NCBI GenBank assembly: GCA_022823145.1 | Contig: JAJDXS010000007.1 | Span: 1 to 64,000, forward strand | Reading direction: 5' to 3' | DNA: 64,000 nucleotides | Source of the DNA: Gemmatimonadota bacterium | GTDB lineage: Bacteria > Gemmatimonadota > Gemmatimonadetes > Longimicrobiales > Gaopeijiaceae | Shown here: positions 8,205 to 56,230 of the stretch, piece after piece | Position numbering within the stretch: the first letter of the stretch is position 1 | Layout: each line of letters opens with the position of its first letter | Translations under genes and position numbers: made by a program | The notes under the pieces: model-generated | Seen by the model: the letters and a program-made list of their open reading frames with translations, nothing else | Told to the model about the DNA's origin: nothing | The model's database searches: none

Positions 8205-8862
8205 AATCCTGGGCTGAGGAGGGAGTTAGGGGTCTGGAGTGCCGGCGCCATCCTGGTTGGCGCGATCATAGGGAGCGGCATTTTCGGTGTGCCTGCCGAG
8301 ATCGCGGCGGAGGCGGGCACGGTGGGCGCGATCGCGCTGCTCTGGCTCGCCGGCTCGGCGATCACCCTCCAGCCCGCCGTGATCGGCGGCATCGCACTCA
8401 TCTTCGCGGCCTACGTCGGCACGCTGGTCCCACTCTCCGAGACCGGCGTGCGGGTGGTCGCCGCAGCGGCCATCGTCGGCCTTTCGCTCGCGATCTTCCT
8501 CTTCGGGGACGGCGGCGCCGGAGCGCTGGCTGCGCCTTCGCAGTTCGCACCGGCTTCGTGGACCGGCGCAGGGATCGCCCTGATTGCCGTGCTATGGGCC
8601 TACGACGGCTGGGGCGAACTGCTCTACGCGGCCGGCGAGGTCAAGGACCCAGAGCGCAACCTCCCCCGGGCGCTGATCGGCGGCTCGCTGGTCGTCGCCG
8701 CGGTCTACCTGCTCGCCAACCGGGCGTGTTCCTGCTCGCGTCCTTCGCGATGCTGGCGAACGCCCTGGTGGGGCGCCGGGGTCGACGCTGTTCAGCTTCG
8801 GCGTGATCGGGGCGGGGGTGGTGGCGTATCGGGTTTGGCGGGCACCGGCACACAGAAAGTAA
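8205..8862 (+). pseudogene. APC-family amino-acid permease remnant
   Basis: The frame contains the classic first helix of APC permeases ([22 protein letters not shown]) and a later segment with [27 protein letters not shown], but the several helices that belong between them are missing. After YLLAN the frame shifts; fragments [15 protein letters not shown] and [24 protein letters not shown] continue in the other two frames up to a TAA at 8860-8862. About 200 codons remain of a protein normally near 450 aa, so it has suffered an internal deletion and at least two frameshifts. The final TAA lies within a copy of the 42-nt intergenic repeat. Confidence 0.75.
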
Positions 8863-8897
8863 AGTTGATATGACAATATGTCATATGAACATTACAT
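8856..8897 (-). repeat. AT-rich 42-nt intergenic repeat, copy A
   Basis: On the minus strand it starts ATGTAATGTT, has a centre ATATTGTCAT and ends CTTTACT, and aligns without gaps to the five other copies. It lies at the 3' end of the permease remnant, whose stop codon it contains, and before the 3' end of the convergent amidohydrolase gene. Base composition contrasts sharply with the GC-rich surroundings. Confidence 0.75.
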
Positions 8898-8973
8898 TGT
8901 CGTTCGTGCTTCCGTGCGAAAGCGTTTCAGCTGAAACGCTGAGGCGTCACCAGCGCGCCACGGTTGAGGCTTA

Positions 8974-10659
8974 CTACCGGTCCGTTCGCCTCAGCAGCCT
9001 GCCCGGCTTCGCGTCCGTGAGCGCCCCGTCGTCGATGACCAATTCGCCATTCACGAAGAGGTAGTCCACGCCCTCGGACTGAAGCGTCGCGTTGGCACCG
9101 AAGTCGGCCCTGTCCCGCATGCGCGCCGGATCAAAAACCACCAGGTCGGCGACCATCCCGGGCTCGACGGTGCCGCGATCCTCAAACCCCAGGCGGCGTG
9201 CGGCCAGCGACGTCATTCTGCGCACGGCTTCCTCCAGGGTAATCACGCCGTCCTCCATCACATACTTGGCGATCACGCGCGGGAACGCCCCGAAGGCCCG
9301 CGGGTGCGTGCTCGACACCGAGGCCGGGTTCACCGGCGAGGCGTCGGTGTCGATCATGACGTAGGGCGCCCGCAGCGCGGCCCACTTCTGCTCCTCGTTC
9401 ATGCTCAGCGGGTTCACGCTGACGCCGCCCGCCTGGACGAGGTCGAAGAAGGCGTTCCACGGGTCGGTGCCGAGGACGTCGGCCGCTTCCCCGACGGAGC
9501 GGTTGACGACACCGGGGTCGACCGAAGCGGGTGCCGAGACGATCAGCACGTTGTTCCAGTCCATGCCGACGTGCTGGTACCAGTTCTCCCACTCGGGGTC
9601 GGTCTCGACCTCTTCGCGCAGCCGGGCCCGCAGGCCGGGGTCGCCGAGGGTGGCCAGGAAGGCCCCGGTGCCGCGCGCGTAGTGGCGCGGGTGCAGGAAC
9701 GAGCCGAGGCCGATGCCGTTGCGGATGTAGGGATAGATGTCTGCCGTGACGTCCATGCCGGCGGTGCGCGCCGAGTCGATGAGCGCCAGCGCCTCGTCCA
9801 TAAGGGGCCAGTTGCGCTGCCCGGCCGCCTTGAGGTGGTAGATGTGGACGGGGACGCCGGCGCCTTCGCCGATGGTCAGCGCTTCGCGGATGGCCTCGAG
9901 GACCGCGTGGCTCTCGTTCCTCATGTGCGTGAAGTAGACGCCACCGTACTCGCCGGCCACCGCGCTGAGGGCGATCAATTCCTCCGTCGACGCGTAGATC
10001 GCGGGCGGATAGATCAGGGACGTGGACACGCCGACCGCGCCGTCCTCCATCCCCTCTCTTACCAACGCCTTCATCTGCTCGAGCTGCTCGGGCGTAGGCG
10101 CGACATCCTCGTTGCCGAGGACCACCCGCCGCACCTGGGTCAGGCCGACGTCGTGGACCACGTTGATGGGAATGCCGTAGCGCTCCACGATCGCGAAGTA
10201 CTCCGAGTAGCGGCGCCAGCGCAGCGTGTCTCCGTCGATCACGGGCGGATTGCTCAGCGTGGCCTCGCTCTGGGGCGCGGCCGATGCCCCCTCGCCCGAC
10301 AGGTAGGTGGTGATGCCCTGGCGCAGCTTGCTCTCGGCGCTCGGCGGGTCGGTGATGAGGACGAGGCTGGCCTGGCCCATCATGTCGACGAAGCCCGGTG
10401 CCACCACACGCCCGGCGGCGTCGATGGTGCGGGCGGCCTCGCGGTCGGAGAGGTCGCCGATGGCCATGATGCGGTCACCGCGCACTCCGACATCGGCGTC
10501 TGCGGGTGGCCCGCCGGTTCCGTCGATCACACGGGCATCGGTGATGAGAACGTCGAAGGGATGGGTGTCGGCAGGCGGGGCGGCGTCGGTGCACGCGGCG
10601 GCGGGGAGAATGGCGCCGGCGGCGAGGGCGGCCAGGGTTTTGCGTCGAGCGGTCTTCAT
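8974..10659 (-). CDS. N-acyl-D-amino-acid deacylase-family amidohydrolase, lipoprotein
   Basis: 561 aa from ATG at 10659, with a GGAG Shine-Dalgarno. The N-terminus MKTARRKTLAALAAGAILPAAAC is a lipoprotein signal with the lipobox cysteine at about residue 23, so the enzyme is exported and membrane-anchored. The body is a composite amidohydrolase: a beta-sandwich (DVLITDARVIDGTGGPPADADVG), a TIM barrel with TYLSGEGAS, FTHMRNES and IYHLKAAGQ, and a C-terminal sandwich ending EPGMVADLVVFDPARM. The family removes N-acyl groups from D-amino acids. In place of the usual HxH after APGFVD there is MMGQAS, so the binuclear metal site is altered; some related proteins share this. It may have a different substrate or be single-metal. 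Confidence 0.8.
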   Translation of the reverse strand: MKTARRKTLAALAAGAILPAAACTDAAPPADTHPFDVLITDARVIDGTGGPPADADVGVRGDRIMAIGDLSDREAARTIDAAGRVVAPGFVDMMGQASLVLITDPPSAESKLRQGITTYLSGEGASAAPQSEATLSNPPVIDGDTLRWRRYSEYFAIVERYGIPINVVHDVGLTQVRRVVLGNEDVAPTPEQLEQMKALVREGMEDGAVGVSTSLIYPPAIYASTEELIALSAVAGEYGGVYFTHMRNESHAVLEAIREALTIGEGAGVPVHIYHLKAAGQRNWPLMDEALALIDSARTAGMDVTADIYPYIRNGIGLGSFLHPRHYARGTGAFLATLGDPGLRARLREEVETDPEWENWYQHVGMDWNNVLIVSAPASVDPGVVNRSVGEAADVLGTDPWNAFFDLVQAGGVSVNPLSMNEEQKWAALRAPYVMIDTDASPVNPASVSSTHPRAFGAFPRVIAKYVMEDGVITLEEAVRRMTSLAARRLGFEDRGTVEPGMVADLVVFDPARMRDRADFGANATLQSEGVDYLFVNGELVIDDGALTDAKPGRLLRRTDR

Positions 10660-10775
10660 GCGGTCGTCTCCGGCTCGGGAACTCACGGACGCGGCGGCGG
10701 GTCCGGACATCGTAGGCTGCCCGGCCCGGGGCGGCCATAGTAGTGCGGCGCCGCTCATCCGCTTCCTTTGCGTAA

Positions 10776-11396
10776 ATGTCCGGATTGGACCGAACGCGGA
10801 GCCAGATGCGAAGCCTTCAACTGATGCGAGACACCGACGACACCCGGATCGCCACGGGCGACGACCCGCTCGACCGGCTCATGGCCGCGATCAAGGGCGG
10901 TTCGTCAAGGGCGCTCGGTCGCCTGATGAGCCTCTGCTGGGAGGATCTCGTGCGCTATGCGGCGCGCCAGCTGGGCGATGTGGAGGTGGCCCGCGATGTC
11001 GTGCAGGAAGCGTTCATCCAGGTGTGGGAGCGGAGGCGGGGCTGGCGGCCGCGGGGATCCGCGCGCGCCTACCTGTACAGGATCGTGCGGCACCTGGTGA
11101 TCGACGAGAAGCGGAAGCAGGGGGTGCGGCGGCGGTGGGCGGAAAGCCGGCAGCTCGTCGATGCGCCGCGGCCCGCCACCCCCGCCGAGGAACTGGACGC
11201 GAAGGTGCTGGCGGATGCGTTCGAAGCTGCCGTGGCGTTGTTGCCGGACCGGCGCCGCGAGGTGTTCGAGCTCGTCTTTCAGCGTGGGCTGAGCCACGCG
11301 GAGGCGGCGGCTGTGCTGGACATCTCGGTGCAGACGGTGGCGAACCAGATGAGTGCCGCGCTGAGGAGCGTGCGACGAGCGATCAAGGAGGACTAG
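10776..11396 (+). CDS. ECF-type RNA polymerase sigma factor
   Basis: 206 aa. Region 2 covers about 45-110 (LMSLCWEDLVRYAARQLGDVEVARDVVQEAFIQVWERR, then YLYRIVRHLVIDEKRK) and region 4 about 140-200 (LLPDRRREVFELVFQRGLSHAEAAAVLDISVQTVANQMSAALRSVRRAI). No region 3, as expected for an ECF factor. An internal ATG at 10806 is an alternative start. It is followed without spacing by fecR and an STN-domain TonB receptor, the layout of cell-surface signalling systems in which a receptor senses its ligand and releases the sigma factor. It therefore probably activates its own operon; no target promoter could be recognised. Confidence 0.9.
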   Translation: MSGLDRTRSQMRSLQLMRDTDDTRIATGDDPLDRLMAAIKGGSSRALGRLMSLCWEDLVRYAARQLGDVEVARDVVQEAFIQVWERRRGWRPRGSARAYLYRIVRHLVIDEKRKQGVRRRWAESRQLVDAPRPATPAEELDAKVLADAFEAAVALLPDRRREVFELVFQRGLSHAEAAAVLDISVQTVANQMSAALRSVRRAIKED

Positions 11397-12419
11397 ATGG
11401 ACGAATTGCTGCTCCGGCATCTGCGTCAGCAGACGACGGAAGAAGAGAACGCCGCGGTCGAAGAGTGGCTGGGCGGATCGGGGGAGCGCGCGCGCAAGCT
11501 GGCCGCACTCGGGCGCCTGGTCGAGGCCGGACAGCTGGCCGACCGCCGGATCGTGCCTGGCGACGTACCGGCTGCCGAAGAGGTGATCTGGCGGGCCGAG
11601 GCGCGGACGGCGGGTTCGGCGGGGTTGGCCGTAGAGCGTCTCGGGAGGAGGCTCAGGCTTCCACGCCCCCGGCGTAGGTTCGACCTCGTCGCAGCGGGGG
11701 TCGTGGTCCTGGCGGCTTCGGTGGTGTTCCAGTTCTTCGTCGGCGGGACCAACAGGGGCCCCGCGAGCGCGCCCGCTTTTCAGGAATTCGTGACCGGCCT
11801 CGGAGAAACCGAGATGGTGCGGCTGGCGGACGGAACCGTGATCCGACTGGGACCGGAGAGTCGCCTGAGCGCGTCAGTGGGAGAGACAACCCGCGATGCC
11901 ACCCTCGAGGGCGAGGCCTTCTTCGCCGTCTCGACCGACCAGGGCCGCCCGTTCCGCGTCGTGACCGAGGCGGGGACGGCGCAGGTTCTGGGTACCCGCT
12001 TCCACCTCACGGCCCGCACGGACGAACTCGCCGTGACGGTCGTGGAGGGCCGGGTCGCGCTCGCCGGGCAGGACCACGAGGTACACGTCGGAGCGGGGCA
12101 GGCCACGAGCCTGTTGGGAGGTCTGCCCTCGCAGATCGAGGCCGCCGCCCCGATCGAGACCGTGGCCGAATGGATGGTCGGCTTCCTCATCTTCCACGAC
12201 ACGCCGCTCGAAGCGGCGATGAAGGAGGTCGAGCGGCACTACGACGCCGAGGTAGTGGTCGGCGACGCTGCGCTCCTGGACCGAACCCTGACCATGTGGT
12301 TCGACGCGAAGTCGCTGCCCGAGGTCATGACGGTGGTGTGCAGCGTCATCGACGCCCGCTGCAGCATCGATGCAGGGGTTGTGAGGATCGAGTCTGCTGA
12401 TCGCGGAGCGGGCTCGTGA
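11397..12419 (+). CDS. FecR-type anti-sigma/signal transducer
   Basis: 340 aa, beginning immediately after the sigma-factor stop (TAG then ATG). Residues 1-85 form the cytoplasmic anti-sigma part, a single membrane helix follows at about 95-116 (FDLVAAGVVVLAASVVFQFFV), and the periplasmic FecR domain has ADGTVIRLGPESRLS, EGEAFFAV, FRVVTEAGTAQVLGTRFHL and VVEGRVAL. The C-terminal 80 residues (HDTPLEAAMKEVERHYDAEVVV) form the short secretin-like domain that contacts the receptor. It should transmit the receptor signal across the inner membrane to the sigma factor encoded upstream. The stop overlaps the receptor start (GTGA). Confidence 0.88.
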   Translation: MDELLLRHLRQQTTEEENAAVEEWLGGSGERARKLAALGRLVEAGQLADRRIVPGDVPAAEEVIWRAEARTAGSAGLAVERLGRRLRLPRPRRRFDLVAAGVVVLAASVVFQFFVGGTNRGPASAPAFQEFVTGLGETEMVRLADGTVIRLGPESRLSASVGETTRDATLEGEAFFAVSTDQGRPFRVVTEAGTAQVLGTRFHLTARTDELAVTVVEGRVALAGQDHEVHVGAGQATSLLGGLPSQIEAAAPIETVAEWMVGFLIFHDTPLEAAMKEVERHYDAEVVVGDAALLDRTLTMWFDAKSLPEVMTVVCSVIDARCSIDAGVVRIESADRGAGS

Positions 12420-15100
12420 GGGCGGTAGGGTGGTGCCGCGCGCTGGCTCTGATGATCGCCATACTTGCCCCCACGGCGCTCGCTGCACAGGACCCCCGGG
12501 TGCTGGCCGCGCTCCGGGGCGAGACCGGCGTGAACCCCGACCCGGGCACCCTGCTGGCCACCATCTCCAGGCTGTCCATCGACCGGGCGCCGCTCGGAGA
12601 GGCCCTCGTCCGGCTCGCCGAACGGTCGAACGTCCAGATCGCCTTCAGCCCCAGTCTGCTCCCGGCCGACCTGCGCGTCGACTGCGACTGCGCGGCGCTG
12701 AACCTGGCCCGGACGCTCGACCTGCTCCTCGCCGACACGGACCTCGGATACGTCGAACTGGGGTCGCAGGTGGTCGTCGTCCCCAGGTCGGGCAGCAATC
12801 TCGCGCCGCCGGATGGGCTGCTGCGCGGCCGCGTGCGGTCCGAAGTCGCGATCCCCATCGAGGACGCCACCGTCCGCCTGACGCCAGCGGTTGACACGAC
12901 CCGACAGCAGATCACCGGTACCGACCGGCTGGGCTACTTCGCCTTCCACGATCTGGCGGCCGGTGACTATATCCTGAGCGTGGCGCACATCGGGTACGCC
13001 CCTGACCAGCAGGCTGTGGATCTGGCTCCGGGATCCGATCTGGACGTGGAGGTCACTCTGGCCGAACAAGCCGTCGAGTTGACCGGTCTCCTGGCGGAGG
13101 GCCGCCGGAGCCGGCGGCGCGAGCGGTTCGAGAGAGCCGGAGGTGTAACGGTGCAGGAGTTGAATCGCCGGGAACTGAAGGCGATTCCCGGCATTGCGGA
13201 GCCCGACGCGATCAAGAGCGTGGAGGTGCTGCCCGGCGTGACCAGGGTCTCCGACTTCAGCGCCGCCTTCAACGTCCGCGGCGGATCGGCCGACCAGAAC
13301 CTGATCCTCCTGGACGGCGTCCCGATCTTCAACCCGTTCCACGCCCTGGGGCTGTTTTCCGTCTTCAACGGCGACATGGTGCAGCGCGCCGAGCTCCACT
13401 CCGGCGGCTTTCCGGCGGAGTACGGCGGGCGTACGTCCTCGGTCCTGCTGGTCGAATCCGATCTGGGCGACGGCGACTTTGGGGTGGACGCAGGCTTGAG
13501 CCTCATCGCAAGCCGCGCTGCCGTGCAAGGCGGCCTTTCGCAAGGCGTGCAGGACCGGCTGGGGCTCGCGGACGCGCGCTGGCGAGTGTCGGGGCGCCGC
13601 AGCTACCTGGACCTGGTGACCCGCCCCTTCCTGGATGCTGCCTTCCCGTACTCGCTGATGGACTTCCAGACAGGATTCGAGGCCTGGACAAAGCATGGCG
13701 ACCGGATCCGAATCACCGGCTACTCGGGGAGGGACGCCGTCGATCTCCGGGATTGGGCGATTCTGGACGGCAGCGATCCGGAAGACATCCCGGACATCGA
13801 TTGGAGCTGGGGGAACGACGCGATCGGCGCTTCCTGGACACGCCCCATGCGCGGTGGCGGGGCGCTGGACGTGCACGGTTCCTTTTCCCGCTTCCAGGGC
13901 GAGTTCGACTTCGGCGAGTTTCAGGATGTCCGGGTCAGCACCGGAATCAGGGAGTCGTCCGTGGGTGTGGACCTCTCGCGGAGACCCACCGGGCGCCTGA
14001 ACTGGAAGTCCGGGTTGGTCGTGAACCGTGCGGCACACGACAATGCCATCGAAGGCGGTATCCCCGAAGCGTTTCCGGTCGGACAGGAAGCCGGCACCGG
14101 GTCGTCAGTCTATTCGCAACTCGAATGGAAAGCGAATGCACGGTGGCTGCTGGAAGGAGGCCTGAGGCTCGACTACTGGCGACCCGACGAGGCCGATGCC
14201 ACCACCGTGATTTCGCCCCGATTCGCCGTGAAGCGCTACGTTCGCGGCGGCGACTGGGCCGCGCGAGCAGCCGCGGGACGGTACTTCCAGTCCATTCTCT
14301 CCATGCGGGACGAAAAGCTGCCGCTCAGTCCGGACTGGTGGATGTCCTCGGGAAGCACGGCACCCGTCGTCGTTTCGGACCATATCCAGGGAGGCGTCGA
14401 GGCTTTTGTCGGGCGCAACGACGAGTGGTTCGTCGCCCTGGAGGGGTACTATCGCCGCTTCGATGGGTTGTCGGCCCGGAACTGGGCGGACGATCCGGAA
14501 GATCCCGACGACGACCTGCTGGTCGGAGAGGGGCGCTCGTACGGTGCCGACCTGATCGTGCGCCGGGACGTGGGTGAAACGACGGGCTGGATTTCCGTTT
14601 CCCTTCTCAAGGCCAGGCGCACCTTCCCCGACACCGGTGCCGGGCTGGAAGCGGCGCCGATCGTCGAATACCCCCCGGTGTTCGATCGGCGACTCGATGT
14701 GGACCTGGTTCTCCGCCGCGAGCTGCCCCACGAGATCGAGGCCGGTCTGCGTTGGAACTTCGGAACCGGGCTGCCGTACACCCGCCCACTCGGTGTGTTC
14801 GAGATATATCGTGCGCAGATCATCGACCTTCTGGTGGATCCCACCTACGCCACAGGCGTCATCTACGGCCCCCGGAACGGTGAGCGCTACCCGGTCCGGC
14901 ACCGCATGGACATCAGCTTTCGCAGGACCTGGGAGAAGGAGTGGGGCCGGATCACACCGCATGTCAGCATCGTCAATGTCTACAACCGGAAGAACGTGCT
15001 CTTCTACTCCTTCAACTTCAGGCCCGAGACTCCGGTTCGCACCGGATCTTCCATGATTCCCATCCTTCCAACCATTGGAGTGGAGGTGTCGTTCCGATGA
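12416..15100 (+). CDS. TonB-dependent outer-membrane receptor with STN signalling domain
   Basis: 894 aa from a GTG inside the fecR stop. A signal peptide ends ALAAQ; an STN domain (about 50-125: APLGEALVRLAERSNVQIAFSP, ARTLDLLLADTDLGY) receives or transmits signals; a carboxypeptidase-regulatory-like domain follows (about 138-222, LRGRVRSEVAIPIEDATVRL). The plug (about 240-360) has FNVRGGSADQNLILLDGVPIF and GGFPAEYGGRTSSVLLVE, and the rest is a beta barrel ending in a typical aromatic-terminated strand (GVEVSFR). With the sigma factor and FecR this is a ligand-inducible uptake system. The ligand (siderophore, glycan or peptide) cannot be deduced. Confidence 0.9.
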   Translation: MRAVGWCRALALMIAILAPTALAAQDPRVLAALRGETGVNPDPGTLLATISRLSIDRAPLGEALVRLAERSNVQIAFSPSLLPADLRVDCDCAALNLARTLDLLLADTDLGYVELGSQVVVVPRSGSNLAPPDGLLRGRVRSEVAIPIEDATVRLTPAVDTTRQQITGTDRLGYFAFHDLAAGDYILSVAHIGYAPDQQAVDLAPGSDLDVEVTLAEQAVELTGLLAEGRRSRRRERFERAGGVTVQELNRRELKAIPGIAEPDAIKSVEVLPGVTRVSDFSAAFNVRGGSADQNLILLDGVPIFNPFHALGLFSVFNGDMVQRAELHSGGFPAEYGGRTSSVLLVESDLGDGDFGVDAGLSLIASRAAVQGGLSQGVQDRLGLADARWRVSGRRSYLDLVTRPFLDAAFPYSLMDFQTGFEAWTKHGDRIRITGYSGRDAVDLRDWAILDGSDPEDIPDIDWSWGNDAIGASWTRPMRGGGALDVHGSFSRFQGEFDFGEFQDVRVSTGIRESSVGVDLSRRPTGRLNWKSGLVVNRAAHDNAIEGGIPEAFPVGQEAGTGSSVYSQLEWKANARWLLEGGLRLDYWRPDEADATTVISPRFAVKRYVRGGDWAARAAAGRYFQSILSMRDEKLPLSPDWWMSSGSTAPVVVSDHIQGGVEAFVGRNDEWFVALEGYYRRFDGLSARNWADDPEDPDDDLLVGEGRSYGADLIVRRDVGETTGWISVSLLKARRTFPDTGAGLEAAPIVEYPPVFDRRLDVDLVLRRELPHEIEAGLRWNFGTGLPYTRPLGVFEIYRAQIIDLLVDPTYATGVIYGPRNGERYPVRHRMDISFRRTWEKEWGRITPHVSIVNVYNRKNVLFYSFNFRPETPVRTGSSMIPILPTIGVEVSFR

Positions 15101-16074: not shown

Positions 16075-16097
16075 CGCGCAACGTCTTTTGTTGCGCG
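16075..16097. terminator. Stem-loop between convergent genes
   Basis: A perfect 8-bp inverted repeat, CGCGCAAC (16075-16082) and GTTGCGCG (16090-16097), encloses a 7-nt loop, GTCTTTT. It lies directly after the lipoprotein stop and three bases before the stop of the convergent copD gene, so it may terminate transcription from both sides. There is no trailing T-run. Confidence 0.55.
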
Positions 16098-16099
16098 GC

Positions 16100-16945: not shown

Positions 16946-17026
16946 CCCCCAGGCCGCGATCAGCGCCGCGAAGTGAAGCCAGCCGACCGCGGCGCCCGGG
17001 ATCGACCCGACGTCCAGTCGGCCCCC

Positions 17027-17470: not shown

Positions 17471-17471
17471 C

Positions 17472-19820: not shown

Positions 19821-19878
19821 TCGAAGGTTTTAGCCGGCTCGAATATAGTACAGCGGCTTCCGGAATTCGAACCGGCTT

Positions 19879-26242: not shown

Positions 26243-26284
26243 ATGTAATGTTTCTATTACATAATGTCATGTCGTCTTTACATT
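26243..26284 (+). repeat. AT-rich 42-nt intergenic repeat, copy B
   Basis: The most regular copy: ATGTAATGT, then ATTACATAATGTC at positions 14-26 and CTTTACATT at the end. ATGTAAT and ATTACAT form an inverted repeat with a 6-nt spacer. It lies in the divergent gap between the Rpn gene start (26074) and the methionine operon promoter (26335). It is the only copy next to a promoter region. Confidence 0.8.
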
Positions 26285-26374: not shown

Positions 26375-26493
26375 AACTCATCGAGACCGGCTGAGGGAAA
26401 GGCCCGTTGAAGCCGGGGCAACCTGTGGGAAGTGGCATTCCCACGAAGGTGCCAACTCCTGCGACGGACGCGCGTCCACCGTAAAGATGAGCC
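26375..26493 (+). promoter_or_regulatory. SAM riboswitch (SAM-I clan) controlling metX-metB-aspartokinase-asd
   Basis: The closing helix P1 is CTCATC (26377-26382) with GATGAG (26486-26491). Between them are the hallmark core strings of SAM-I aptamers: GAGACCGGCTGAGGGAAA, GGCCCGTTGAAGCC, GGGGCAACC, a P3 hairpin with stem GTGGGAA/TTCCCAC, then GGTGCCAACTCCTGC and a GGACG/CGTCC hairpin. It directly precedes methionine biosynthesis genes. In this class S-adenosylmethionine binding turns expression off. Whether it is SAM-I proper or a related SAM-IV or SAM-I/IV variant needs a covariance-model comparison. Confidence 0.9.
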
Positions 26494-29637: not shown

Positions 29638-30755
29638 AAGGGCAGACAGCCGAGAGGTTCGGTACCGACGGAGGCCGAACCCCCGTGGCCGTTCTCGGCG
29701 CGACCGGACTGGTGGGCCAGCGGTTGGTGCGGATGGTCGAAGGGCACCCGTTCTTCACTGTGGCAGAGGTGGTGGGCTCGGAGCGTCGCGCTGGCCGCCA
29801 CTACGCTGAAGCAACGGGGTGGGCGATCGGGGGTGATCCTCCGGCACGGACGTCCGGGCTCGAATTGCTTCCACCGGAAGCCCCTTTGCGGAGCCGCGTT
29901 GTACTCTCCGCCCTGCCATCCGCACCGGCGAAGGAGACGGAACTGTCTCTCTCACGCTCCGGCCACGTCGTCTGCACCAACGCATCGGCACACCGGCTGC
30001 GACCCGATACGCCGCTGATCATTCCGGAGGTGAACGCTGAGGCGATCGCCGGAGTCGCAACCCAGCCCTGGTCCGAGGCCGGCGGGGCGCTCGTGGCGAA
30101 CCCGAATTGCGTGGTCGTCGCGCTGGCCATGGCGCTTGCGCCCATCGAGCGCGCCTTCGGGATCGAATCGGCGACGGTCGTGACGCTGCAGGCCCTCTCG
30201 GGCGCGGGGTTGAGCGGTCTCAACGCCGTCGAGGTTGCCGGGAACGTGGTCCCGTGGATCCGCGGCGAAGAAGAGAAGATCGGTCCCGAACTCAACAAGG
30301 TCCTCGACACCGATATCGACGTCGCGGTGGCTGTGAACCGGGTTCCCGTCCTGGACGGCCACACCGCTCACGTCTTCTGCAAGCTCCGAAGTCCGGCATC
30401 GCGCGTCGACGCCGTCCAGGCGCTGCAGGATTTTTGCCCGTCCGACACAGCGGCCGCGCTGCCCACCCTCCCCACCCGGCCCCTGGTCGTGCGTACCGAG
30501 CCCGACCGCCCCCAGCCCCGCCTCGACGCGGACGTTGCGGCAGGCATGGCCGTCAGCGTCGGCCGCATCCGCACGGCCCCCGCACCGCACGACCTCGCGC
30601 TGGTCGCGGTCGCCCACAACGGCATCCGCGGAGCGGCCGGGGCTTGCCTGGCGAACGCGGAGTTGTGCGCGTCGCACCTGGGGCTGGACCTGCCCTGGGA
30701 CCGCCCCGAACCGCGGGACAAGGGCGCCGCTCTGGTGGACCCGAACTGCCAGTAA
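29619..30755 (+). CDS. asd: Aspartate-semialdehyde dehydrogenase
   Basis: 378 aa from GTG at 29619, overlapping the kinase gene by 19 nt. It has the Rossmann motif VAVLGATGLVGQRLVRMV, the catalytic cysteine in VANPNCVVVALAMAL, LQALSGAGLSGLNAVEVAGNV and a dimerisation half ending in AVAHNGIRGAAGACLANAE. It reduces aspartyl phosphate to the semialdehyde with NADPH. It resembles the archaeal/fungal-type ASADH rather than the E. coli type (GATGLVGQ start, no long insertion). The TAA stop is part of intergenic repeat copy C. Confidence 0.87.
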   Translation: MAGAQLKGQTAERFGTDGGRTPVAVLGATGLVGQRLVRMVEGHPFFTVAEVVGSERRAGRHYAEATGWAIGGDPPARTSGLELLPPEAPLRSRVVLSALPSAPAKETELSLSRSGHVVCTNASAHRLRPDTPLIIPEVNAEAIAGVATQPWSEAGGALVANPNCVVVALAMALAPIERAFGIESATVVTLQALSGAGLSGLNAVEVAGNVVPWIRGEEEKIGPELNKVLDTDIDVAVAVNRVPVLDGHTAHVFCKLRSPASRVDAVQALQDFCPSDTAAALPTLPTRPLVVRTEPDRPQPRLDADVAAGMAVSVGRIRTAPAPHDLALVAVAHNGIRGAAGACLANAELCASHLGLDLPWDRPEPRDKGAALVDPNCQ

Positions 30756-30791
30756 TGTCGACATTACATAATGTAAAGGTGACATTACATT
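30750..30791 (+). repeat. AT-rich 42-nt intergenic repeat, copy C
   Basis: Aligned without gaps to the other copies: GTAATGT at positions 3-9, ATTACATAATGT at 14-25, and a right arm ACATTACATT. The asd stop codon (30753-30755) falls inside the left arm. This is the only copy between two genes in the same direction; it separates the riboswitch operon from the next gene 68 nt later. Confidence 0.8.
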
Positions 30792-41644: not shown

Positions 41645-41651
41645 GGACTGA

Positions 41652-41693
41652 AATGTAAAGACAACACGACATATTGTAATGTTGTCATTACAT
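41652..41693 (-). repeat. AT-rich 42-nt intergenic repeat, copy D
   Basis: On the minus strand: ATGTAATG, ATTACAATATGTC, and GTCTTTACATT, aligning without gaps to copy B. It occupies almost the whole 58-nt gap between the convergent trypsin gene (stop 41644) and the potassium-channel gene (stop 41703). Confidence 0.85.
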
Positions 41694-41702
41694 GATTGCT
41701 CC

Positions 41703-45337: not shown

Positions 45338-45450
45338 GTGGTTCGGCGGCCTTTCCCCAGAGTTTGAATCGACCCCGGTGCACGCTATTGCGCCGCCCAG
45401 GGCGTTGCGGTGATGATATCGCGACCCCGATAACTCGGAGCGATTTCGAA

Positions 45451-48282: not shown

Positions 48283-48323
48283 CTGAACAGGCGGGCCGGT
48301 TCAGCCGCGCCTTGCGTCGTGGT

Positions 48324-48413
48324 CCCGGCGGTGCCCGCGTCCCCACTGGTGCCCGCGCCCCTACTCGTGCTCGCGCCCCTACTGGTGCTCGCGCCCCTCG
48401 CCGTGCTCGCGGA
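48324..48413. repeat. Tandem array of five 18-bp units
   Basis: Imperfect units share the core GTGCTCGCGCC or GTGCCCGCGCC, at 48324, 48342, 48360, 48378 and 48396. The array straddles the stop codon of the zinc-ribbon gene (48379-48381 on the minus strand), covering its last ten codons and the downstream sequence. In another frame it encodes GASTSR-like repeats. Confidence 0.7.
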
Positions 48414-49386: not shown

Positions 49387-49505
49387 GGTGCTCCTTGTTT
49401 GCCCTGATCGGGGATCGCAGGTTTCCAGCCGAAGATACGCGGGCGCAGGCGATTCCATTCCCCGAGCGTGGGAATCTACCAGAGAACATCAGCGAGGTGA
49501 GGACC

Positions 49506-50699
49506 ATGCCGCAGGAGACCACGGCGATGATCAACGACCCGATGGGGGTATTCGCTTTCCTTGCGGGACTTGTCGCGCTGATCTTCTGGGTCTCGGAACT
49601 CCCACGGTGCAAGAAGCTCTTCGAGGTTGTTCCCCCGGTCATCTACGTCTATTTCCTGCCGATGCTCGCGACTACGGCCGGGATTACGCCGGCCGCGTCG
49701 CCGTTGTACGAATGGACGGTTCCCTACCTGCTTCTGTTTGCGCTGCTGATGCTGATGGTGTCGGTCGACCTGGGCAGCGTCGCGCGGCTGGGGCCGGTCG
49801 CCCTGTTCATGGTGGCGGCGGGCACCATCGGCATCGTGATCGGCGGGCCGATTTCGCTGATGATCTTCGGCGGCATGCTTCCCGAGGACGCATGGACGGG
49901 GTTTGCCGCGCTTTCGGGAAGCTGGATCGGGGGGACGGCCAACATGGTGGCGATCGCGGAAAGCGTGGGCACTTCGCCTGACGCGATGGGACCGGTGATC
50001 GTGGTGGACACAGTGGTCGGGTATGGATGGATGGGCGTGTTGATCGCCATGGTCGGGCTTCAGGGCCGGTTCGACCGCCGGACAAAAGCGCGCACGGACG
50101 CCATCGAGCAGACCAACCGTCGGCTGGAGGAAATGAAGAGCGAGAGACGCCCCCTGACGCTGCGCCATGCAGTGGTGATGATCGGATTCGGGATGGCGTG
50201 CGCGGTGTTGGCCCAGCGATTGGGACAGAGGTTCCCTGCGGTCGGCGACCCCACGATCATCAGCGGCACCACCTGGGCGATCCTCATCGTCGTCACCGGC
50301 GGGCTGGTGCTCTCGTTCACCCCGCTCAGGAAACTGGAGACCGTGGGCGCTTCGCACCTCGGCTACACCGCGCTGTACCTGCTGCTGGCCGGTATCGGGG
50401 CGCAGGCGGATCTCCGAGCGGTGCTCGATGCGCCCGTCTACCTGCTGGCGGGCGCCGTCTGGATCGCGATCCACCTGAGCATCCTCCTCATCGCCGCCAG
50501 GATCGTGCGCGCGCCGTTGTTCTTCGTGGCGACCGGGAGCATGGCCAACATCGGCGGGGCGGCGTCGGCTCCGGTGGTCGCAGGGGTGTACCACCGTGCG
50601 ATGGCTCCGATCGGGCTGCTGATGGCGGTCGCGGGCTACATCCTGGGGATCTATGCAGCGATCCTGTGTGCGTGGCTGCTGGGGCTGGTGGGGGGCTGA
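49506..50699 (+). CDS. DUF819 (YjcL-like) membrane transporter
   Basis: 397 aa from ATG at 49506 (GAGGTGAGG upstream), ten or so hydrophobic helices. The DUF819 pattern is visible: VPPVIYVYFLPMLATTAGI, a central FAALSGSWIGGTANMVAIAESVGTSPDAMGPVIVVDTVVGYGWMGVLIAM, and a second half FFVATGSMANIGGAASAPVVAGVYHRAMAPIGLLMAVAGYILG. The two SMANIGG/GGTAN segments mark the inverted repeat of this fold. Substrate unknown in the family; some relatives have been linked to amino-acid or peptide-related compounds. It lies between two paralogous zinc-ribbon genes, 26 nt before the second, so a shared role is likely. Confidence 0.82.
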   Translation: MPQETTAMINDPMGVFAFLAGLVALIFWVSELPRCKKLFEVVPPVIYVYFLPMLATTAGITPAASPLYEWTVPYLLLFALLMLMVSVDLGSVARLGPVALFMVAAGTIGIVIGGPISLMIFGGMLPEDAWTGFAALSGSWIGGTANMVAIAESVGTSPDAMGPVIVVDTVVGYGWMGVLIAMVGLQGRFDRRTKARTDAIEQTNRRLEEMKSERRPLTLRHAVVMIGFGMACAVLAQRLGQRFPAVGDPTIISGTTWAILIVVTGGLVLSFTPLRKLETVGASHLGYTALYLLLAGIGAQADLRAVLDAPVYLLAGAVWIAIHLSILLIAARIVRAPLFFVATGSMANIGGAASAPVVAGVYHRAMAPIGLLMAVAGYILGIYAAILCAWLLGLVGG

Positions 50700-50725
50700 T
50701 CGCCGCCTGACGGGCAGGGGTCTGG

Positions 50726-51793
50726 GTGTACCGGAACTGCATGTATTGCCAGAAGGACCTCGGAAGCAACGAGATAGTCGAGGAGTTCCCGGTCGGCCGC
50801 CGCCTGGCCTTCGATGCGGAGAAGGGACGGCTATGGGTGGTGTGTCGCCGCTGCGAGCGCTGGAACCTCACTCCGCTGGAGGAGCGATGGGAGGCGGTGG
50901 AAACGTGTGAGAAGCTCTTTCGGGGCACACGCGTCCGTGTTTCAACTGAGAACATCGGGCTGGCGAAGCACCGCGAAGGGCTGGAACTGGTTCGGATCGG
51001 GAAGCCGCTGAGGCCCGAGTTCGCGGCGTGGCGGTACGGGGACCAGTTCGGCCGGAGGAGGCAGCGCGCCTTCGTGCTGGGAACCGCGGCGACCGTTGCC
51101 GGACTCGGGGGCCTGGTCTTGGGCGGGGCGTTGGTGGGACTGGGGGGTCTCGGGCTCGGGTCGGCTGCCTTCCACTTGGTCGACGTCTTGCGCAACTATA
51201 ATCCGTCGGTGTTCTTCCGCCCGGAGGACGGGCGACTGAGGTGGATGAACGCACACCGCATTCGCAGCGCTCGACTGGTGCCGGCGCACGACGAATCCGG
51301 CTTCAGCGTTGAAGCGAAGGCCAAGGGCCTGGTCTCCGACGAGGAGCGGTTCGACGGGGAGGACGGAATGCGTGCCCTGAACGCGATACTGCCGAGGGTC
51401 AATGCCGGAGGCGGTTCCCGAAGGACCGTACAGGACGCGGTCGCGAGGATTGCCTTTGCGGGGCAGCCCGACCGGTTCATGAGGCGCCTTGCACACGGGC
51501 GGGCATCTCCATACTCACCGGCAGGCGTACAGTTGAGCACGCTGACGAAGCCCACTCGACTGGCTCTCGAGATGGCACTCCACGAGGAACAGGAGCGTAG
51601 GGCGTTGGAGGGTGAGCTGTGGATGCTGGAGCGAGCATGGCGGGAGGCCGAGGAGATTGCCGCGATTTCGGATAATCTGCTGGTGCGGAAGAGTGCGGAC
51701 GCCTTCATCCGGGAGCACCGGGACGCGCGCGGGGGTGAGGGTGGACCCCCGGAGGCCGGGAGTGGACCCCAGAAAACCGGGGGACGCGGGTGA
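50726..51793 (+). CDS. Zinc-ribbon membrane protein of unknown function, paralogue 2
   Basis: 355 aa from GTG at 50726. Same layout as paralogue 1: CMYC (5-8) and CRRC (40-43) cysteine pairs, FPVGRRLAFDAEKGRLWVVC, a basic stretch, a Gly-rich hydrophobic region (about 117-150, GGLVLGGALVGLGGLGLG), and a C-terminal helix LALEMALHEEQERRALEGELW. The first 110 and last 60 residues are closely conserved, while the central part (about 150-260) has diverged and carries its own LNAILPRVNAGGGSRRTVQ. The C-terminus ends in a Gly/Pro tail. It overlaps the next gene by 4 nt (GTGA). Function unknown; regulation or sensing together with the DUF819 transporter is only a guess. Confidence 0.75.
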   Translation: MYRNCMYCQKDLGSNEIVEEFPVGRRLAFDAEKGRLWVVCRRCERWNLTPLEERWEAVETCEKLFRGTRVRVSTENIGLAKHREGLELVRIGKPLRPEFAAWRYGDQFGRRRQRAFVLGTAATVAGLGGLVLGGALVGLGGLGLGSAAFHLVDVLRNYNPSVFFRPEDGRLRWMNAHRIRSARLVPAHDESGFSVEAKAKGLVSDEERFDGEDGMRALNAILPRVNAGGGSRRTVQDAVARIAFAGQPDRFMRRLAHGRASPYSPAGVQLSTLTKPTRLALEMALHEEQERRALEGELWMLERAWREAEEIAAISDNLLVRKSADAFIREHRDARGGEGGPPEAGSGPQKTGGRG

Positions 51794-52521
51794 GCACACT
51801 TAAGGTCGAATACCACTGGCCGCGGCAGTCGGGGGGCCCCGAGGCCGGGCGGGGGCGCCGGGGCGGCTCGGGACATCACCGCCGGCCGAGGCGCCTGCCC
51901 CTGCGCCTGCTCCGCTGGGCCGTGCTCGCTGTCATCCTGGCGATTGTCCCCTTCTTCCTCCTCATTCGGGGCGGCGTGTTCGCCGACCAGCAATGGGGGC
52001 TGGGTCCGTGGCCGTCCCTGGCGGTGTCGGCGGCGGCGACAGCGCTTCTCCTGGTCCTCTACGCGTGGGCCCTGGGCCGCCGCCTCGGAGCGGGGAAGGG
52101 GCTCAAATGGCTCTTGACCCGGGGCGCGGCGGCTCTGGCGGTCGCGTACGTCGCCTACTCCGTCGTCTACGTGGGAAGCGCAAACGTGAAGTCGGAAGAG
52201 GTGCGCGCCGAATACGCTGCCCTCCACCCGCTGCTGCGCCTGGCCGCGAGCGCCGTCATCCTTGCCGACCAGGGCGCCGTCATCACGGACGCGAGCCGCA
52301 CCCCCGACTTCTACCGCCGGATGGGGCTATCACCGAACGAATCGTCGCTCCACTTCAGACAGGACGACGGCTTCGTGCACGCGCTGGACCTGCGCACGGT
52401 CGGCCGCCCCGAGTGGCGGAACCGCGCCGTCGAGTTGACGTTCCGGGCGCTGGGCTTCAACACGCTGCGTCACGTGGGGACGGCGGACCATCTGCACGTG
52501 TCGGTGAAGGCCCCAGGATAG
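51790..52521 (+). CDS. Membrane protein with LAS (M15-like) metallopeptidase-type domain
   Basis: 243 aa from a GTG in the upstream stop. A basic, Gly/Arg-rich N-terminus is followed by three hydrophobic segments (about 40-60, 75-95, 110-130). The soluble part ends with SSLHFRQDDGFVHALDLRTVG and TADHLHVSV. The H-x(3)-D and the terminal HxH with a preceding helix (RNRAVELTFRALGF) fit the zinc site of LAS peptidases (D-Ala-D-Ala carboxypeptidase, M15 type). The similarity is motif-level. A periplasmic role on peptidoglycan or a peptide is possible. It is coupled to the zinc-ribbon gene, which makes it part of the same unit. Confidence 0.5.
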   Translation: MSTLKVEYHWPRQSGGPEAGRGRRGGSGHHRRPRRLPLRLLRWAVLAVILAIVPFFLLIRGGVFADQQWGLGPWPSLAVSAAATALLLVLYAWALGRRLGAGKGLKWLLTRGAAALAVAYVAYSVVYVGSANVKSEEVRAEYAALHPLLRLAASAVILADQGAVITDASRTPDFYRRMGLSPNESSLHFRQDDGFVHALDLRTVGRPEWRNRAVELTFRALGFNTLRHVGTADHLHVSVKAPG

Positions 52522-52529
52522 GTCCATCA

Positions 52530-52627
52530 AGTCCATCACCGACTGTCGACTCCAAGTCGCTCCAGTCCTCGTCCGCGGCTCGCAACGCGCGGAAGGTCTC
52601 CTCCCAGGACATCCTGTCGCGCGCCGG
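52530..52627 (-). pseudogene. Possible antitoxin (AbrB/MazE-type) C-terminal remnant
   Basis: On the minus strand the frame contains ARDRMSWEETFRAL and ADEDWSDLESTVGDGLDG, which resembles the tail of AbrB-fold antitoxins of toxin-antitoxin pairs (W-E-E-x-F-x-A-x, acidic stretch). There is no DNA-binding N-terminal domain, and the upstream side is occupied by intergenic repeat copy E. The match is weak, and no toxin gene is adjacent. I list it only as a likely degraded fragment. Confidence 0.25.
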
Positions 52628-52642
52628 CGTCCCGCCCACGAA

Positions 52643-52684
52643 TTGACAACTGTACATTACATAATGGCAAGTACAGTTTACGCA
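52643..52684 (+). repeat. AT-rich 42-nt intergenic repeat, copy E
   Basis: The most diverged copy. It keeps the core ATTACATAATG at positions 14-24 and TTTAC at the correct distance, but its left arm has changed. It lies between the convergent M15-like gene (stop 52521) and the DUF3500 gene (stop 52714). Confidence 0.65.
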
Positions 52685-52713
52685 ATTGCGACATCAAAAG
52701 ATCCGCGCCCCCC

Positions 52714-53775
<1,062 letters not shown>

Positions 53776-53783
53776 TCTCTTTC

Positions 53784-55109
53784 CTACCCTTCTTCTGCTT
53801 GAATCATCGCTGCAACTTCCTGCACCTCGTCGAGAACGCGAAGCAGGTTGCCGCTCCAGAGCATGCCGATCTCCTCTTCCGTGTAGCCGCGCCGGACGAG
53901 TTCCAGCGTGACGTTGAAGGTTTCCGATGCGTCGTCCCAGCCCGCCACGCCGCCGCCGCCGTCGAAGTCCGAGCTGATGCCGACGTGCTCGAGGCCGATC
54001 AGGTTGACCATGTAGTCGATCTGGTCGACGAAATCGGCCACGCTCACGTCGGGGGGGATGTCCATGTCGGCCGCCCGTTCCGCCGCCGTGGCCCGGACCT
54101 CGGACATCTGCGCGAAGTAGGCGTCGCGTTCATCGGGGGGAAGGGCGAACATCCCGCCCCGTCCGAGCATCTCGACGCCCATTTCGGCCGCCACCTCCGC
54201 CTCGATCGCGTCCATGGCCTCACGGTGGGCCGCGTTCCGGGTCGTGTTAACGAAGGAGCGGAGCGCGACGGTTTGCACCACACCACCGTTCGCGGCCACG
54301 GCGTGCAGCTGCTCGTCGTCGAGGTTGCGGCTCACGTCGCTCAGCCCGCGGGCGGACGAGTGCGACGCCATCACGGGTGCCCGGGTCATCTCCAGCGTCT
54401 GCATGATCGAGGGCTTCGACGGGTGCGAGATGTCGATCATGATCCCGAGCCGGTTCATCTCGGCGACCGCCTCGCGGCCCATCTCGCTCAGGCCCCCGTG
54501 CAGGAAGTCGCCGTCGTTCTCGCCGGAGTGCGCGTCGGACAGCTGGTTCGGGCCGGTGTGCGCGAGCGACATGTAGCGCGCGCCCCGCCCGTGGAACTCC
54601 TCGACGCGCGAGATGTCGGTGCCCAGCGGATACGCGTTCTCGACCCCGATCATCGCGACCAGCTTGCCGGAGGCCGCGATCCGGCGGACGTCGTCGGATG
54701 TGAGCGCCAGCTCGATGCGGTCGGGCGCGTATTCGTTCACCATGCGGTGGATGGCGTCGAACTTGTCGACCGCGTTCTCGTAGGCCGTGGCGTAGCCTTC
54801 GTCGTTGAGCAGGCCCTGGGACGTGTAGACGACGAACCAGCCGACGTCGAGCCCGCCCGCTTCCATCTTCGGCAGGGTGACCTGCGTCGGCAGGTCCGTG
54901 GTGTAGTTGCGCTCGGCGGTGAAGTTCGCCGTGCTGATGTCGATGTGCGTGTCCAGCGTGATGACCCGGTCGTGGATCTCGCGGGCGCGTTCGATCACGG
55001 CCTCCTCGGATTCCTCGGCGGAGTCGTCGGCGGGGGCGCAGGCGGTGGCGCTGACGGCGAGTGCGAGTGAGAGCGCGAGGAAGCAAGTGGCAGGACGGGC
55101 AATGGTCAT
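53784..55109 (-). CDS. Membrane dipeptidase (M19, renal dipeptidase family), lipoprotein
   Basis: 441 aa; lipoprotein signal MTIARPATCFLALSLALAVSATAC. The TIM-barrel metalloenzyme shows HxD in VITLDTHIDIS, the bridging glutamate in AMIGVENAYPL, histidines in MIDISHPSKPS and MASHSSARGLSDVSRNL, and the C-terminal GISSDFDGGGGV. It hydrolyses dipeptides, often with a D-residue at the C-terminal side. It forms a probable two-gene unit with DUF3500. It fits with the other peptidases in the window and the D-aminoacylase-like protein at 8974. Confidence 0.87.
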   Translation of the reverse strand: MTIARPATCFLALSLALAVSATACAPADDSAEESEEAVIERAREIHDRVITLDTHIDISTANFTAERNYTTDLPTQVTLPKMEAGGLDVGWFVVYTSQGLLNDEGYATAYENAVDKFDAIHRMVNEYAPDRIELALTSDDVRRIAASGKLVAMIGVENAYPLGTDISRVEEFHGRGARYMSLAHTGPNQLSDAHSGENDGDFLHGGLSEMGREAVAEMNRLGIMIDISHPSKPSIMQTLEMTRAPVMASHSSARGLSDVSRNLDDEQLHAVAANGGVVQTVALRSFVNTTRNAAHREAMDAIEAEVAAEMGVEMLGRGGMFALPPDERDAYFAQMSEVRATAAERAADMDIPPDVSVADFVDQIDYMVNLIGLEHVGISSDFDGGGGVAGWDDASETFNVTLELVRRGYTEEEIGMLWSGNLLRVLDEVQEVAAMIQAEEG

Positions 55110-55270
55110 GTGTGCTGCTCCGGTCTCCGGTGTCCGGTTAGGGCGGTATCCCGTTCAACATAGGGGTCGGGACGGGGTACGGCATCCCGGCAGGTGCGCC
55201 CGGACTCTCGGTACCTTGTTGGACGGGACTTTCCCGCGATCAGCCAGCCTCCCCGAACCCGGAGCCCGCC

Positions 55271-55594
55271 ATGGGAATCGTCGACTCCACCCGCCAGCGC
55301 CGCTTCTCGCCCGAGAAGATGCAGAAGCTCAACCTCTTCGAGACCGGTCAGATGTTCTGCGACGTCTACTGCCTGGGTCCCGAGCAGGCCCAGCACGTAC
55401 ACACGCATGCGGGCGCGACGAAGTTCTATTATGTGATCGAGGGCGAAGGCCGATTCACGGTGGGCGACCGGAGCGAAGTCCTGGGCCCGGGCGCGGTGGC
55501 GTGGTCAGAACCGGGTGAGCCGCACGGCGTCGCCAACGAGTCCGGTGGCGCCCTGGTTCTGCTGGTGGCGATGGCGCCGAACCCGAACCGGTAG
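55271..55594 (+). CDS. Small cupin-domain protein
   Basis: 107 aa, a single cupin barrel. Motif 1 is GPEQAQHVHTHAGATKFYYVIEGEGRFTVG (HxH, then E) and motif 2 is GPGAVAWSEPGEPHGVANESG, giving the three His/Glu metal ligands. No other domain. It could be a metal-dependent isomerase, dioxygenase or sugar-binding protein; sequence does not tell which. It starts divergently from the dipeptidase gene and precedes the methyltransferase gene by 10 nt. Confidence 0.82.
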   Translation: MGIVDSTRQRRFSPEKMQKLNLFETGQMFCDVYCLGPEQAQHVHTHAGATKFYYVIEGEGRFTVGDRSEVLGPGAVAWSEPGEPHGVANESGGALVLLVAMAPNPNR

Positions 55595-55604
55595 GGGGCC
55601 GCGC

Positions 55605-56153
55605 ATGTCCAACATTCTCTTCGGCGTCGCCGTCCTGATCCTGCTGGCGGCGCTGGCGGGTGCAGTCTGGTCGGTGGTGGTCCCGGAAAAGCGTCTGTGG
55701 CCCCCGCCCAGACGTGGTTCCTGGCCGTACCTGCTGAACTGGCTCGGCTTCTATGTAGTGTGCGGGATCAGCCTCCTGCTGCTTCTCATGTACTGGAACT
55801 CCTGGATCTTTCCGAGCCCGCTCCGCTTCGTCCTCGGTGTGCCGCTGGCCGTGCTCGGCGGCTCGCTGGCACTCTGGGCAACGTTGGCCGCGGGCTGGAA
55901 GAACACGAGCGGGCTGAAGGACGGGTTCGTGTCCTCGGGCCCCTACAGGTTCTCGCGGAACCCGCAGTACGTGGGCCATATCGCATTGTTCATCGGCGTG
56001 AGCGTAATCGCGAACTCGCTGCTCCTGTGGATCACGCACCTGTTGATGGCGCTGTTGTTCGTGCTGGCGCCGCTGGCGGAGGAGCCGTGGCTGGAGGAGC
56101 AGTACGGCGGCGCTTACCGGGAGTATCGGAAGAGGGTGCGACGATTTCTATGA
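55605..56153 (+). CDS. Isoprenylcysteine carboxyl methyltransferase-like membrane protein
   Basis: 182 aa from ATG at 55605, with four or five helices. The C-terminal ICMT/PEMT signature is present: GPYRFSRNPQYVGHIALFIG, then a helix and APLAEEPWLEEQYGGAYREYRKRVRRFL with the acidic pair and final Arg. In this family SAM is used to methylate lipids or small lipophilic acceptors. Bacterial members are rarely assigned. It shares a transcript with the cupin gene by position and ends 35 nt before repeat copy F. Confidence 0.8.
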   Translation: MSNILFGVAVLILLAALAGAVWSVVVPEKRLWPPPRRGSWPYLLNWLGFYVVCGISLLLLLMYWNSWIFPSPLRFVLGVPLAVLGGSLALWATLAAGWKNTSGLKDGFVSSGPYRFSRNPQYVGHIALFIGVSVIANSLLLWITHLLMALLFVLAPLAEEPWLEEQYGGAYREYRKRVRRFL

Positions 56154-56188
56154 GCGGTGAGGAGCCACGATTGAGTTCCAACAGTGAT

Positions 56189-56230
56189 ATGTAAATTGTG
56201 CTTTACATAATGTCGTATTTACTTTACATC
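56189..56230 (+). repeat. AT-rich 42-nt intergenic repeat, copy F
   Basis: Aligned gap-free with copy B: ATGTAA, TTTACATAATGTC at 14-26, and ACTTTACAT at the end. It lies in the 93-nt gap between the convergent methyltransferase gene (stop 56153) and permease copy 3 (stop 56247). Confidence 0.85.

What the first reader, a model, noticed from the sequence alone, without database searches (positions are those of the whole stretch)
8856..56230. Six dispersed copies of a 42-nt AT-rich repeat in a GC-rich genome
Copies at 8856, 26243, 30750, 41652, 52643 and 56189 (A and D in the reverse orientation) align without any gap. Shared blocks are ATGTAAT(G) at 1-8, ATTACATAATGTC at 14-26 and CTTTACAT at about 34-41. 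ATGTAAT-N6-ATTACAT is an inverted repeat, and TGTAA/TTACA half-sites occur three or four times. All copies are intergenic; four of six lie between convergent genes (A, D, E, F). Arms with a 6-nt spacer recall recombinase core sites, but clustered operators, a MITE-like element or a nucleoid-binding site are also possible.
Basis: seen in the sequence. Interest (0 to 1): 0.85.

Follow-up and report, generated by a model that had tools for sequence, protein, structure and literature searches.

The report
Metal-regulator operator copied genome-wide
In a group of sponge-associated bacteria, the short DNA landing site of what looks like a molybdenum/tungsten-type switch protein is found not once but tens to probably hundreds of times per genome, more often where genes end than where they start, and evolution appears to be preserving it there.

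Summary
The repeat is real and the six window copies are a small sample. The 42-bp unit is two abutting palindromes (GTMA-N8-TKAC, centres 21 bp apart). The window's genome (sponge-type BD2-11/Longimicrobiales Gemmatimonadota) holds at least 93 copies. It occurs in 22 of 23 genomes of the genus and was rare or not found in the other genera sampled.

A gene for an HTH_3 + PBP_like regulator (TaoR-like architecture; modA- and modB-like genes follow) is present in all 22 site-bearing genomes, absent from the site-less member, and has this site just upstream in 22 of 22. One genome of another genus has a single strict match, upstream of its homologue. The unit is therefore very probably that regulator's autoregulatory operator, multiplied.

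Between orthologous copies, half-site columns differ at 2.5% and spacer columns at 34%, so sites look selected. They are enriched between convergent genes and near gene 3' ends and avoid divergent gaps. The palindromes do not covary as RNA hairpins. Some copies ride in a 249-bp MITE-like repeat whose site-less 174-bp form also occurs in two other genera; 84 of 86 own copies examined do not.

The recombinase reading is not supported. What the satellite copies do (roadblock at gene ends, chromosome organiser, decoy) is inferred, not tested.

The parts
8856..8897 (-). copy A; between convergent genes, overlaps the 3' end of the left ORF
26243..26284 (+). copy B; tandem gap, upstream of a SAM riboswitch
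30750..30791 (+). copy C; tandem gap, its first GTAA overlaps the stop codon of the left ORF
41652..41693 (-). copy D; between convergent genes; a site is also present at the orthologous gap in G002 and G015, and in a gap about 1 kb longer in G006
52643..52684 (+). copy E; between convergent genes; a site also present in G002, G015, G010, G006 and, in longer gaps, G012, G020, G021; none found in G001, G004, G016, G017, G019, G022
56189..56230 (+). copy F; between convergent genes; no site at the gap in G002, G004, G006, G010, G016, G017; G021 has one in a gap about 1.85 kb longer

Best explanation
The 42-bp unit is the operator of one DNA-binding regulator, an about 370-residue protein with an HTH_3 domain and a PBP_like ligand domain, encoded once per genome just downstream of a copy of the unit and followed by modA/modB-like transporter genes. 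Shown: the unit's anatomy, its copy number, its tie to this gene, and conservation of its half-sites. Inferred: one dimer sits on each 16-18 bp palindrome, and two dimers bind side by side two helical turns apart; a molybdate- or tungstate-type ligand switches binding; the copy at the gene gives autoregulation. In this genus the operator has multiplied from one to tens or hundreds of copies that are kept by selection. My most likely role for the satellites is local: a protein-covered roadblock or insulator at gene ends that stops read-through or head-on transcription (about 0.35 on its own). The confidence below is for the operator identity plus selective maintenance, not for that role.
For: Co-occurrence: regulator found in 22 of 22 site-bearing genomes of the genus, not in the site-less G009; homologues in 5 of the other 35 genomes searched. 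Position: site 5' of the regulator, same orientation, in 22 of 22, PWM score 35.4 to 66.8, while 2 Mb of simulated sequence gave none above 10. The own-genome copy at this place was found only this way, missed by the genome search. Another genus: G033 has exactly one strict-pattern match, 112 bp before its 55%-identical homologue, palindromes intact and centres 22 bp apart. Strict pattern: 4 to 159 matches in each of the 22 genomes, 0 in the reversed control of all 58. Selection: 63 distinct orthologous pairs, 25 of 1008 differences in high-information columns, 103 of 305 in low-information columns, flanks 89% identical; with one pair per own site 6 of 288 and 27 of 86. Retention: of 16 own sites asked, the gaps readable in G002 (10) and G015 (11) are all consistent with a site. 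Placement: convergent over divergent, odds ratio 7.0 own and 7.1 in relatives without MITE loci; in tandem gaps closer to the upstream 3' end (23 against 78 bp own; 35 against 52 relatives). No RNA covariation: 74.1% paired against 73.8% shuffled.
Against: Binding is not shown; the link is by position and co-occurrence, and the 22 genomes share ancestry, so 22 of 22 is not 22 independent events. Homologues in G035, G038 and G023 show no such site in the upstream stretch printed, and G034's upstream was not available. Two sites lie inside called genes and 10 in divergent gaps. Orthologous pairs are conditional on a site being detected in both. One measure of base-pair covariation was high (pairs with a change on both sides, 12 of 500 shuffles reach it). 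Genes starting within 200 bp of own sites show no common function in the 25 Pfam families displayed of 90, so the satellites have no evident metal regulon. G009 and other genera do without them. G010 lacks one of the asked sites and F has no counterpart in six relatives.
Confidence: 0.72

Rival explanations
1. Chromosome-organising sites: the regulator, or a protein derived from it, bridges dispersed sites like MatP/matS, SlmA/SBS or Noc/NBS, and gene ends are simply where binding is tolerated.
For: Dispersed, sequence-specific, tens to hundreds of copies, mostly outside divergent gaps.
Against: Spacing in G021 is near random (CV 0.90) and neither G021 (96 sites, KS p 0.24) nor G001 (20 listed sites, p 0.13) shows a dependence on distance from dnaA; copy number varies several-fold within the genus; G009 lacks both.
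Confidence: 0.2
2. Decoys: satellites have no local effect and soak up regulator, buffering or delaying the autoregulatory loop.
For: Single autoregulated regulator with many operator-strength copies; decoy effects on self-regulated genes are an established theoretical theme (titles and abstract starts only).
Against: Selection through a shared pool should be weak per site, yet half-site columns are strongly conserved and placement is biased to gene ends.
Confidence: 0.15
3. Ordinary pleiotropic regulon: each site controls the adjacent promoter.
For: The copy at the regulator gene, and B in the window, are upstream of genes; 10 of 87 mapped sites are in divergent gaps.
Against: Divergent gaps are avoided, convergent gaps enriched; no shared function among 53 genes starting within 200 bp in the families shown.
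Confidence: 0.15
4. Mobile DNA only: the units are debris of a MITE and have no function.
For: A 249-bp repeat with terminal inverted repeats and the site in the middle: 34 listed near-full copies in G021, 2 in own genome; one-armed copies occur.
Against: 242 of 287 distinct held sites have no arm; arms without site (174-bp form) occur in G009, G030 and G033, which lack satellites; half-sites conserved while spacers drift.
Confidence: 0.08
5. Recombinase or cassette-insertion sites.
For: Some orthologous gaps hold extra genes next to a site, e.g. G006 at D, G021 at E and F.
Against: Gaps with extra DNA and no site also occur (G010 and G009 at D, G004 and G010 at F); readable gaps in G002 and G015 keep the site. 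No recombinase was searched for.
Confidence: 0.03

Closest known systems
TaoR-family regulators (HTH plus PBP-like domain, molybdate/tungstate)
   Same: HTH domain joined to PBP_like PF12727, next to modA/modB-like genes.
   Different: HTH_3 here; TaoR-like proteins are described with HTH-17 (PMC11980592, passages). A multiplied operator is not something I know of for TaoR. Rajeev 2019 was seen only as a reference entry.
REP elements (GTAG/CGTC tagged)
   Same: Small palindromic repeats, mostly between unidirectional or convergent ORFs and downstream of genes (PMC3733652, abstract).
   Different: No GTAG/CGTC tag in the consensus, no covarying hairpin, a fixed two-palindrome operator layout and a candidate binding protein.
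matS, SlmA and Noc binding sites
   Same: Dispersed specific binding sites of one protein (recalled; listing only).
   Different: No origin/terminus pattern; four half-sites; protein carries a ligand domain.
MITEs carrying protein-binding sites (Correia elements with IHF sites)
   Same: A MITE-like repeat here carries the operator; analogue seen in a listing only.
   Different: Most copies are outside the MITE.

Membership tests
TaoR-like regulator | HTH plus PBP_like PF12727 in one protein | tested here: met
   L228 protein and own L337 protein, PF12727 E 1e-42 and 1e-43, HTH_3 E 3e-11 and 7e-12
TaoR-like regulator | HTH of the HTH-17 type | tested here: not met
   best HTH match is HTH_3; HTH_17 not among matches at E <= 0.001
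TaoR-like regulator | binds molybdate or tungstate | not testable with these tools
   inferred from domain and neighbours only
autoregulatory operator of this regulator | site just upstream of the gene wherever gene and sites co-occur | tested here: met
   22 of 22
autoregulatory operator of this regulator | protein binds the site | not testable with these tools
   no binding data
MITE | terminal inverted repeats around the unit | tested here: not met
   242 of 287 held sites without either arm; met only for 31 with both arms
REP element | RNA/DNA hairpin with covarying stem | tested here: not met
   pairing 74.1% against 73.8% shuffled; covariation reached by 111 of 500 shuffles
REP element | associated RAYT transposase | not tested
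   no search made
nucleoid-organising site | non-random placement relative to origin or terminus | tested here: not met
   KS p 0.24 (G021) and 0.13 (G001), dnaA as origin proxy
tyrosine recombinase core site | precise gain or loss of DNA between sites and a dedicated recombinase | not tested
   no recombinase search; retention in close relatives argues against
MazEF toxin-antitoxin operator | antitoxin gene next to sites | tested here: not met
   MazE homologues within 150 bp of a site only at gap E, in 7 genomes

The most novel reading that the evidence does not exclude
A local, ligand-sensing autorepressor has been turned into a genome-wide gene-end factor: its operator was copied to hundreds of 3' ends and convergent gaps, where the bound protein acts as a terminator or insulator, coupling transcription boundaries to metal status. 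In G011, the member with the densest sites seen here (15 in 110 kb fetched around known sites), part of the ligand domain seems lost, as if binding had become constitutive.
Probability: 0.3. Interest if true: 0.88.

Novelty: new variant of a known kind. Interest (0 to 1): 0.7.

Why it matters
It would be a clear natural series, within one genus plus an outgroup, from one operator (G033) through about 20 (G001) to about 100 (own, G021) and probably hundreds (G011), for how a local regulator becomes a genome-wide DNA-binding factor. It gives a named candidate protein and in vitro tests (DAP-seq) that need no culture. It also adds a class of selected intergenic repeat that is neither an RNA hairpin nor, mostly, mobile DNA. 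My searches found no description of it (open-access PMC library, listings only).

Tried and rejected
RNA hairpin or terminator: no covariation; a strict hairpin-plus-T rule finds 1 of 175 gene ends without and 1 of 90 with a site, so substitution for intrinsic terminators could not be judged. MazEF operator: suggested by gap E, where G012 has mazE and mazF beside the site, rejected because no other site region held shows it. Metal regulon: no common family seen (first 25 of 90 families). Recurrent neighbour genes: large paralogous families near several sites, no single cassette. Origin/terminus pattern: none; GC skew samples were too noisy to place the origin. Other genera as intermediates: G252's six matches discounted, because the contig listed (C164, 57829 bp) has the length and site position of JAPPJO010000126.1 (L122), whose site flanks are identical to the VXQO genome; G122, G174, G197, G245, G052, G156, G279 and G293 have 1-2 matches each and were not followed up. 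Single-palindrome sites were not counted separately. Structure prediction was not used: the stated rule lists loci of other tools than the one that brought the regulator.

Limits: genome searches score a capped number of candidates (150 of 354 own; 150 of 496 G021), so counts are lower bounds. The 92 own places were merged by hand; one more was found upstream of the regulator. Gene calls come from my own caller. Relatives' loci were chosen because they hold strong sites. One search counted reciprocal pairs twice; one search replaces it (2.2% against 33% became 2.5% against 34%). Genome-to-accession matches rest on contig length.
Full report
Observation. The six copies are present as described. 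In the window's own genome (G000, 4,490,311 bp in 83 contigs; window = C38:1-64000) the core TTACATAATGTC with up to 2 mismatches has 146 matches against 31 for the reversed control. A sequence-only model of 34 copies gives 92 distinct places, a lower bound because 150 of 354 candidates were scored. A PWM built from these sites separates cleanly: 86 sites in 80 fetched stretches plus the window score above 40, none between 20 and 40, and none above 10 in 2 Mb of simulated sequence; one of the 87 mapped sites (C69:118678, shorter spacing) does not fit the PWM.

Anatomy. Two palindromes, consensus TGTMATGT-NN-ACATKACA, abut with centres 21 bp apart. High information lies in GTMA/TKAC of all four half-sites; spacer and flank columns carry little (one search uses 54 copies not in the seed set). 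Half-sites vary independently (M at the fourth position without the matching change in its partner), and base pairing does not exceed column shuffles (74.1% against 73.8%), although one of five measures, pairs changed on both sides, is high (12 of 500). This fits protein-DNA recognition rather than an RNA stem.

Distribution. 22 of 23 genomes of the genus have the unit; G009 has none; 0 of 36 genomes of other genera at E <= 1e-4. In 298 genomes drawn from the phylum, 26 have a match at E <= 0.001: 17 of the genus and 9 others with 1 to 6 matches, of which G252's is probably a misbinned contig. A strict pattern, GTAA-N8-TKAC-N4..8-GTMA-N8-TTAC, has 4 to 159 matches in each of the 22, none in G009, 1 in G033, 1 in G049, 2 in G052, and no reversed-control match in any of 58 genomes. 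A viral scan found none. Sponge origin is recalled from the kind of record, not from a call.

The protein. Among genes next to sites, one family stood out in the low-copy genomes: an HTH protein adjacent to a site in G001, G004, G016, G017 and G019. It has HTH_3 and PBP_like domains and is followed by a ModA-like and a ModB-like gene (ModA by Pfam; ModB by eye). It is found in 22 of 22 site-bearing genomes, not in G009, and as homologues in G033, G034, G035, G038 and G023 of 35 others. The 42-bp unit precedes it in 22 of 22, including the window's own genome at C23. G033, another genus, has one strict match, upstream of its homologue, with centres 22 bp apart. G035, G038 and G023 show none in the stretch printed. 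The simplest account is an ancestral autoregulatory operator that multiplied in this genus.

Selection and turnover. In 63 distinct orthologous pairs (flanks 89% identical) differences are 25 of 1008 in 16 high-information columns, 198 of 1134 in 18 middle columns and 103 of 305 in 5 low-information columns; three pairs under 60% identity were dropped, and with them the figures are 2.7%, 19% and 36%. Using one pair per own site (18 sites): 6 of 288 against 27 of 86. These are conditional on a site in both genomes. An unbiased look asked 16 own sites in three relatives: in G002 10 gaps could be read, 9 with an extra 43-49 bp and one with +9; in G015 11 could be read, 9 with +44-48, one +63, one +9 where one search lists a site; in G010 one is absent (-4) and the rest are unclear. 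In the window, D and E have counterparts in G002 and G015, while F has none in G002.

Placement. Own genome, re-called genes: 24 convergent, 48 tandem, 10 divergent against 22, 131, 64 for other gaps of 45 bp or more. Relatives without MITE loci, duplicates removed: 41, 83, 13 against 65, 320, 147. In tandem gaps sites sit nearer the upstream 3' end. Positions in G021 and G001 do not depend on distance from dnaA.

Mobile DNA. A repeat with ends AGCAGTCCGTGGA... and ...TCCACGGGCTGCT occurs at about 174 bp without the site and about 249 bp with it. Site-less arms occur in G009 and in two other genera (G030, G033); near-full site-bearing copies are listed for G021 (34), own (2), G001 (3) and G004. 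The extra 75 bp is bounded by a GCGAAGC-like repeat, which may be a target duplication. So the operator once entered a family-level repeat and was then carried by it, but most sites travelled or arose otherwise; how is unknown.

Mechanism and standing. Shown: anatomy, abundance, the tie to one regulator gene, half-site conservation, gene-end bias. Inferred: binding by that regulator, two dimers per unit, a metal ligand, and the role of satellites. I favour a roadblock or insulator at gene ends, because conservation per site and the 3' bias are easier to explain by a local effect than by titration, but organiser, decoy and regulon readings remain open. In G011, 15 sites were found in 110 kb fetched around known sites, roughly 230-380 per genome by extrapolation, and its regulator seems to lack part of the PBP_like domain (reading; a 227-residue part scanned has no PBP_like match).

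Known relatives. The protein works like, and shares domains with, TaoR-family regulators but has a different HTH class (passages of PMC11980592). Placement resembles REPs (abstract of PMC3733652). Searches for prior descriptions gave none in their listings; no paper on this genus was read.

Noticed in passing
window 26375-26493: SAM riboswitch (RF00162, 73 bits) 91 bp after copy B, upstream of a Cys/Met PLP enzyme gene.
   Followed up: no
window about 52526-52615 (minus); L315:10569-11152: Remnant of a MazE-type antitoxin gene next to copy E; G012 has complete mazE and mazF there, 32 bp from the site. Described only.
   Followed up: partly
L108:3870-4119, L088:3923-4170, L088:7043-7216: MITE-like repeat with terminal inverted repeats in two sizes, 249 bp with and 174 bp without the operator; the short form also in G009, G030 and G033.
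   Followed up: yes
L301:16356-16433 (gap F of G002): A 78-bp remnant of the same repeat, without the operator, fills the gap where the window has copy F.
   Followed up: no
L344 (G011): The regulator seems to have lost part of its ligand domain in the genome with the most strict-pattern matches, 159.
   Followed up: partly
L122 (JAPPJO010000126.1): Contig filed as Gammaproteobacteria with site flanks identical to VXQO (L164): probably a misbinned contig.
   Followed up: no
G000 C50, right flank of the site at 1411: An about 105-bp stretch next to this site matches many places in G002, G010 and G015: another dispersed repeat.
   Followed up: no
G000 C69:118678: A variant unit with shorter spacing between its two palindromes, found by the model but not by the PWM.
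   Followed up: no
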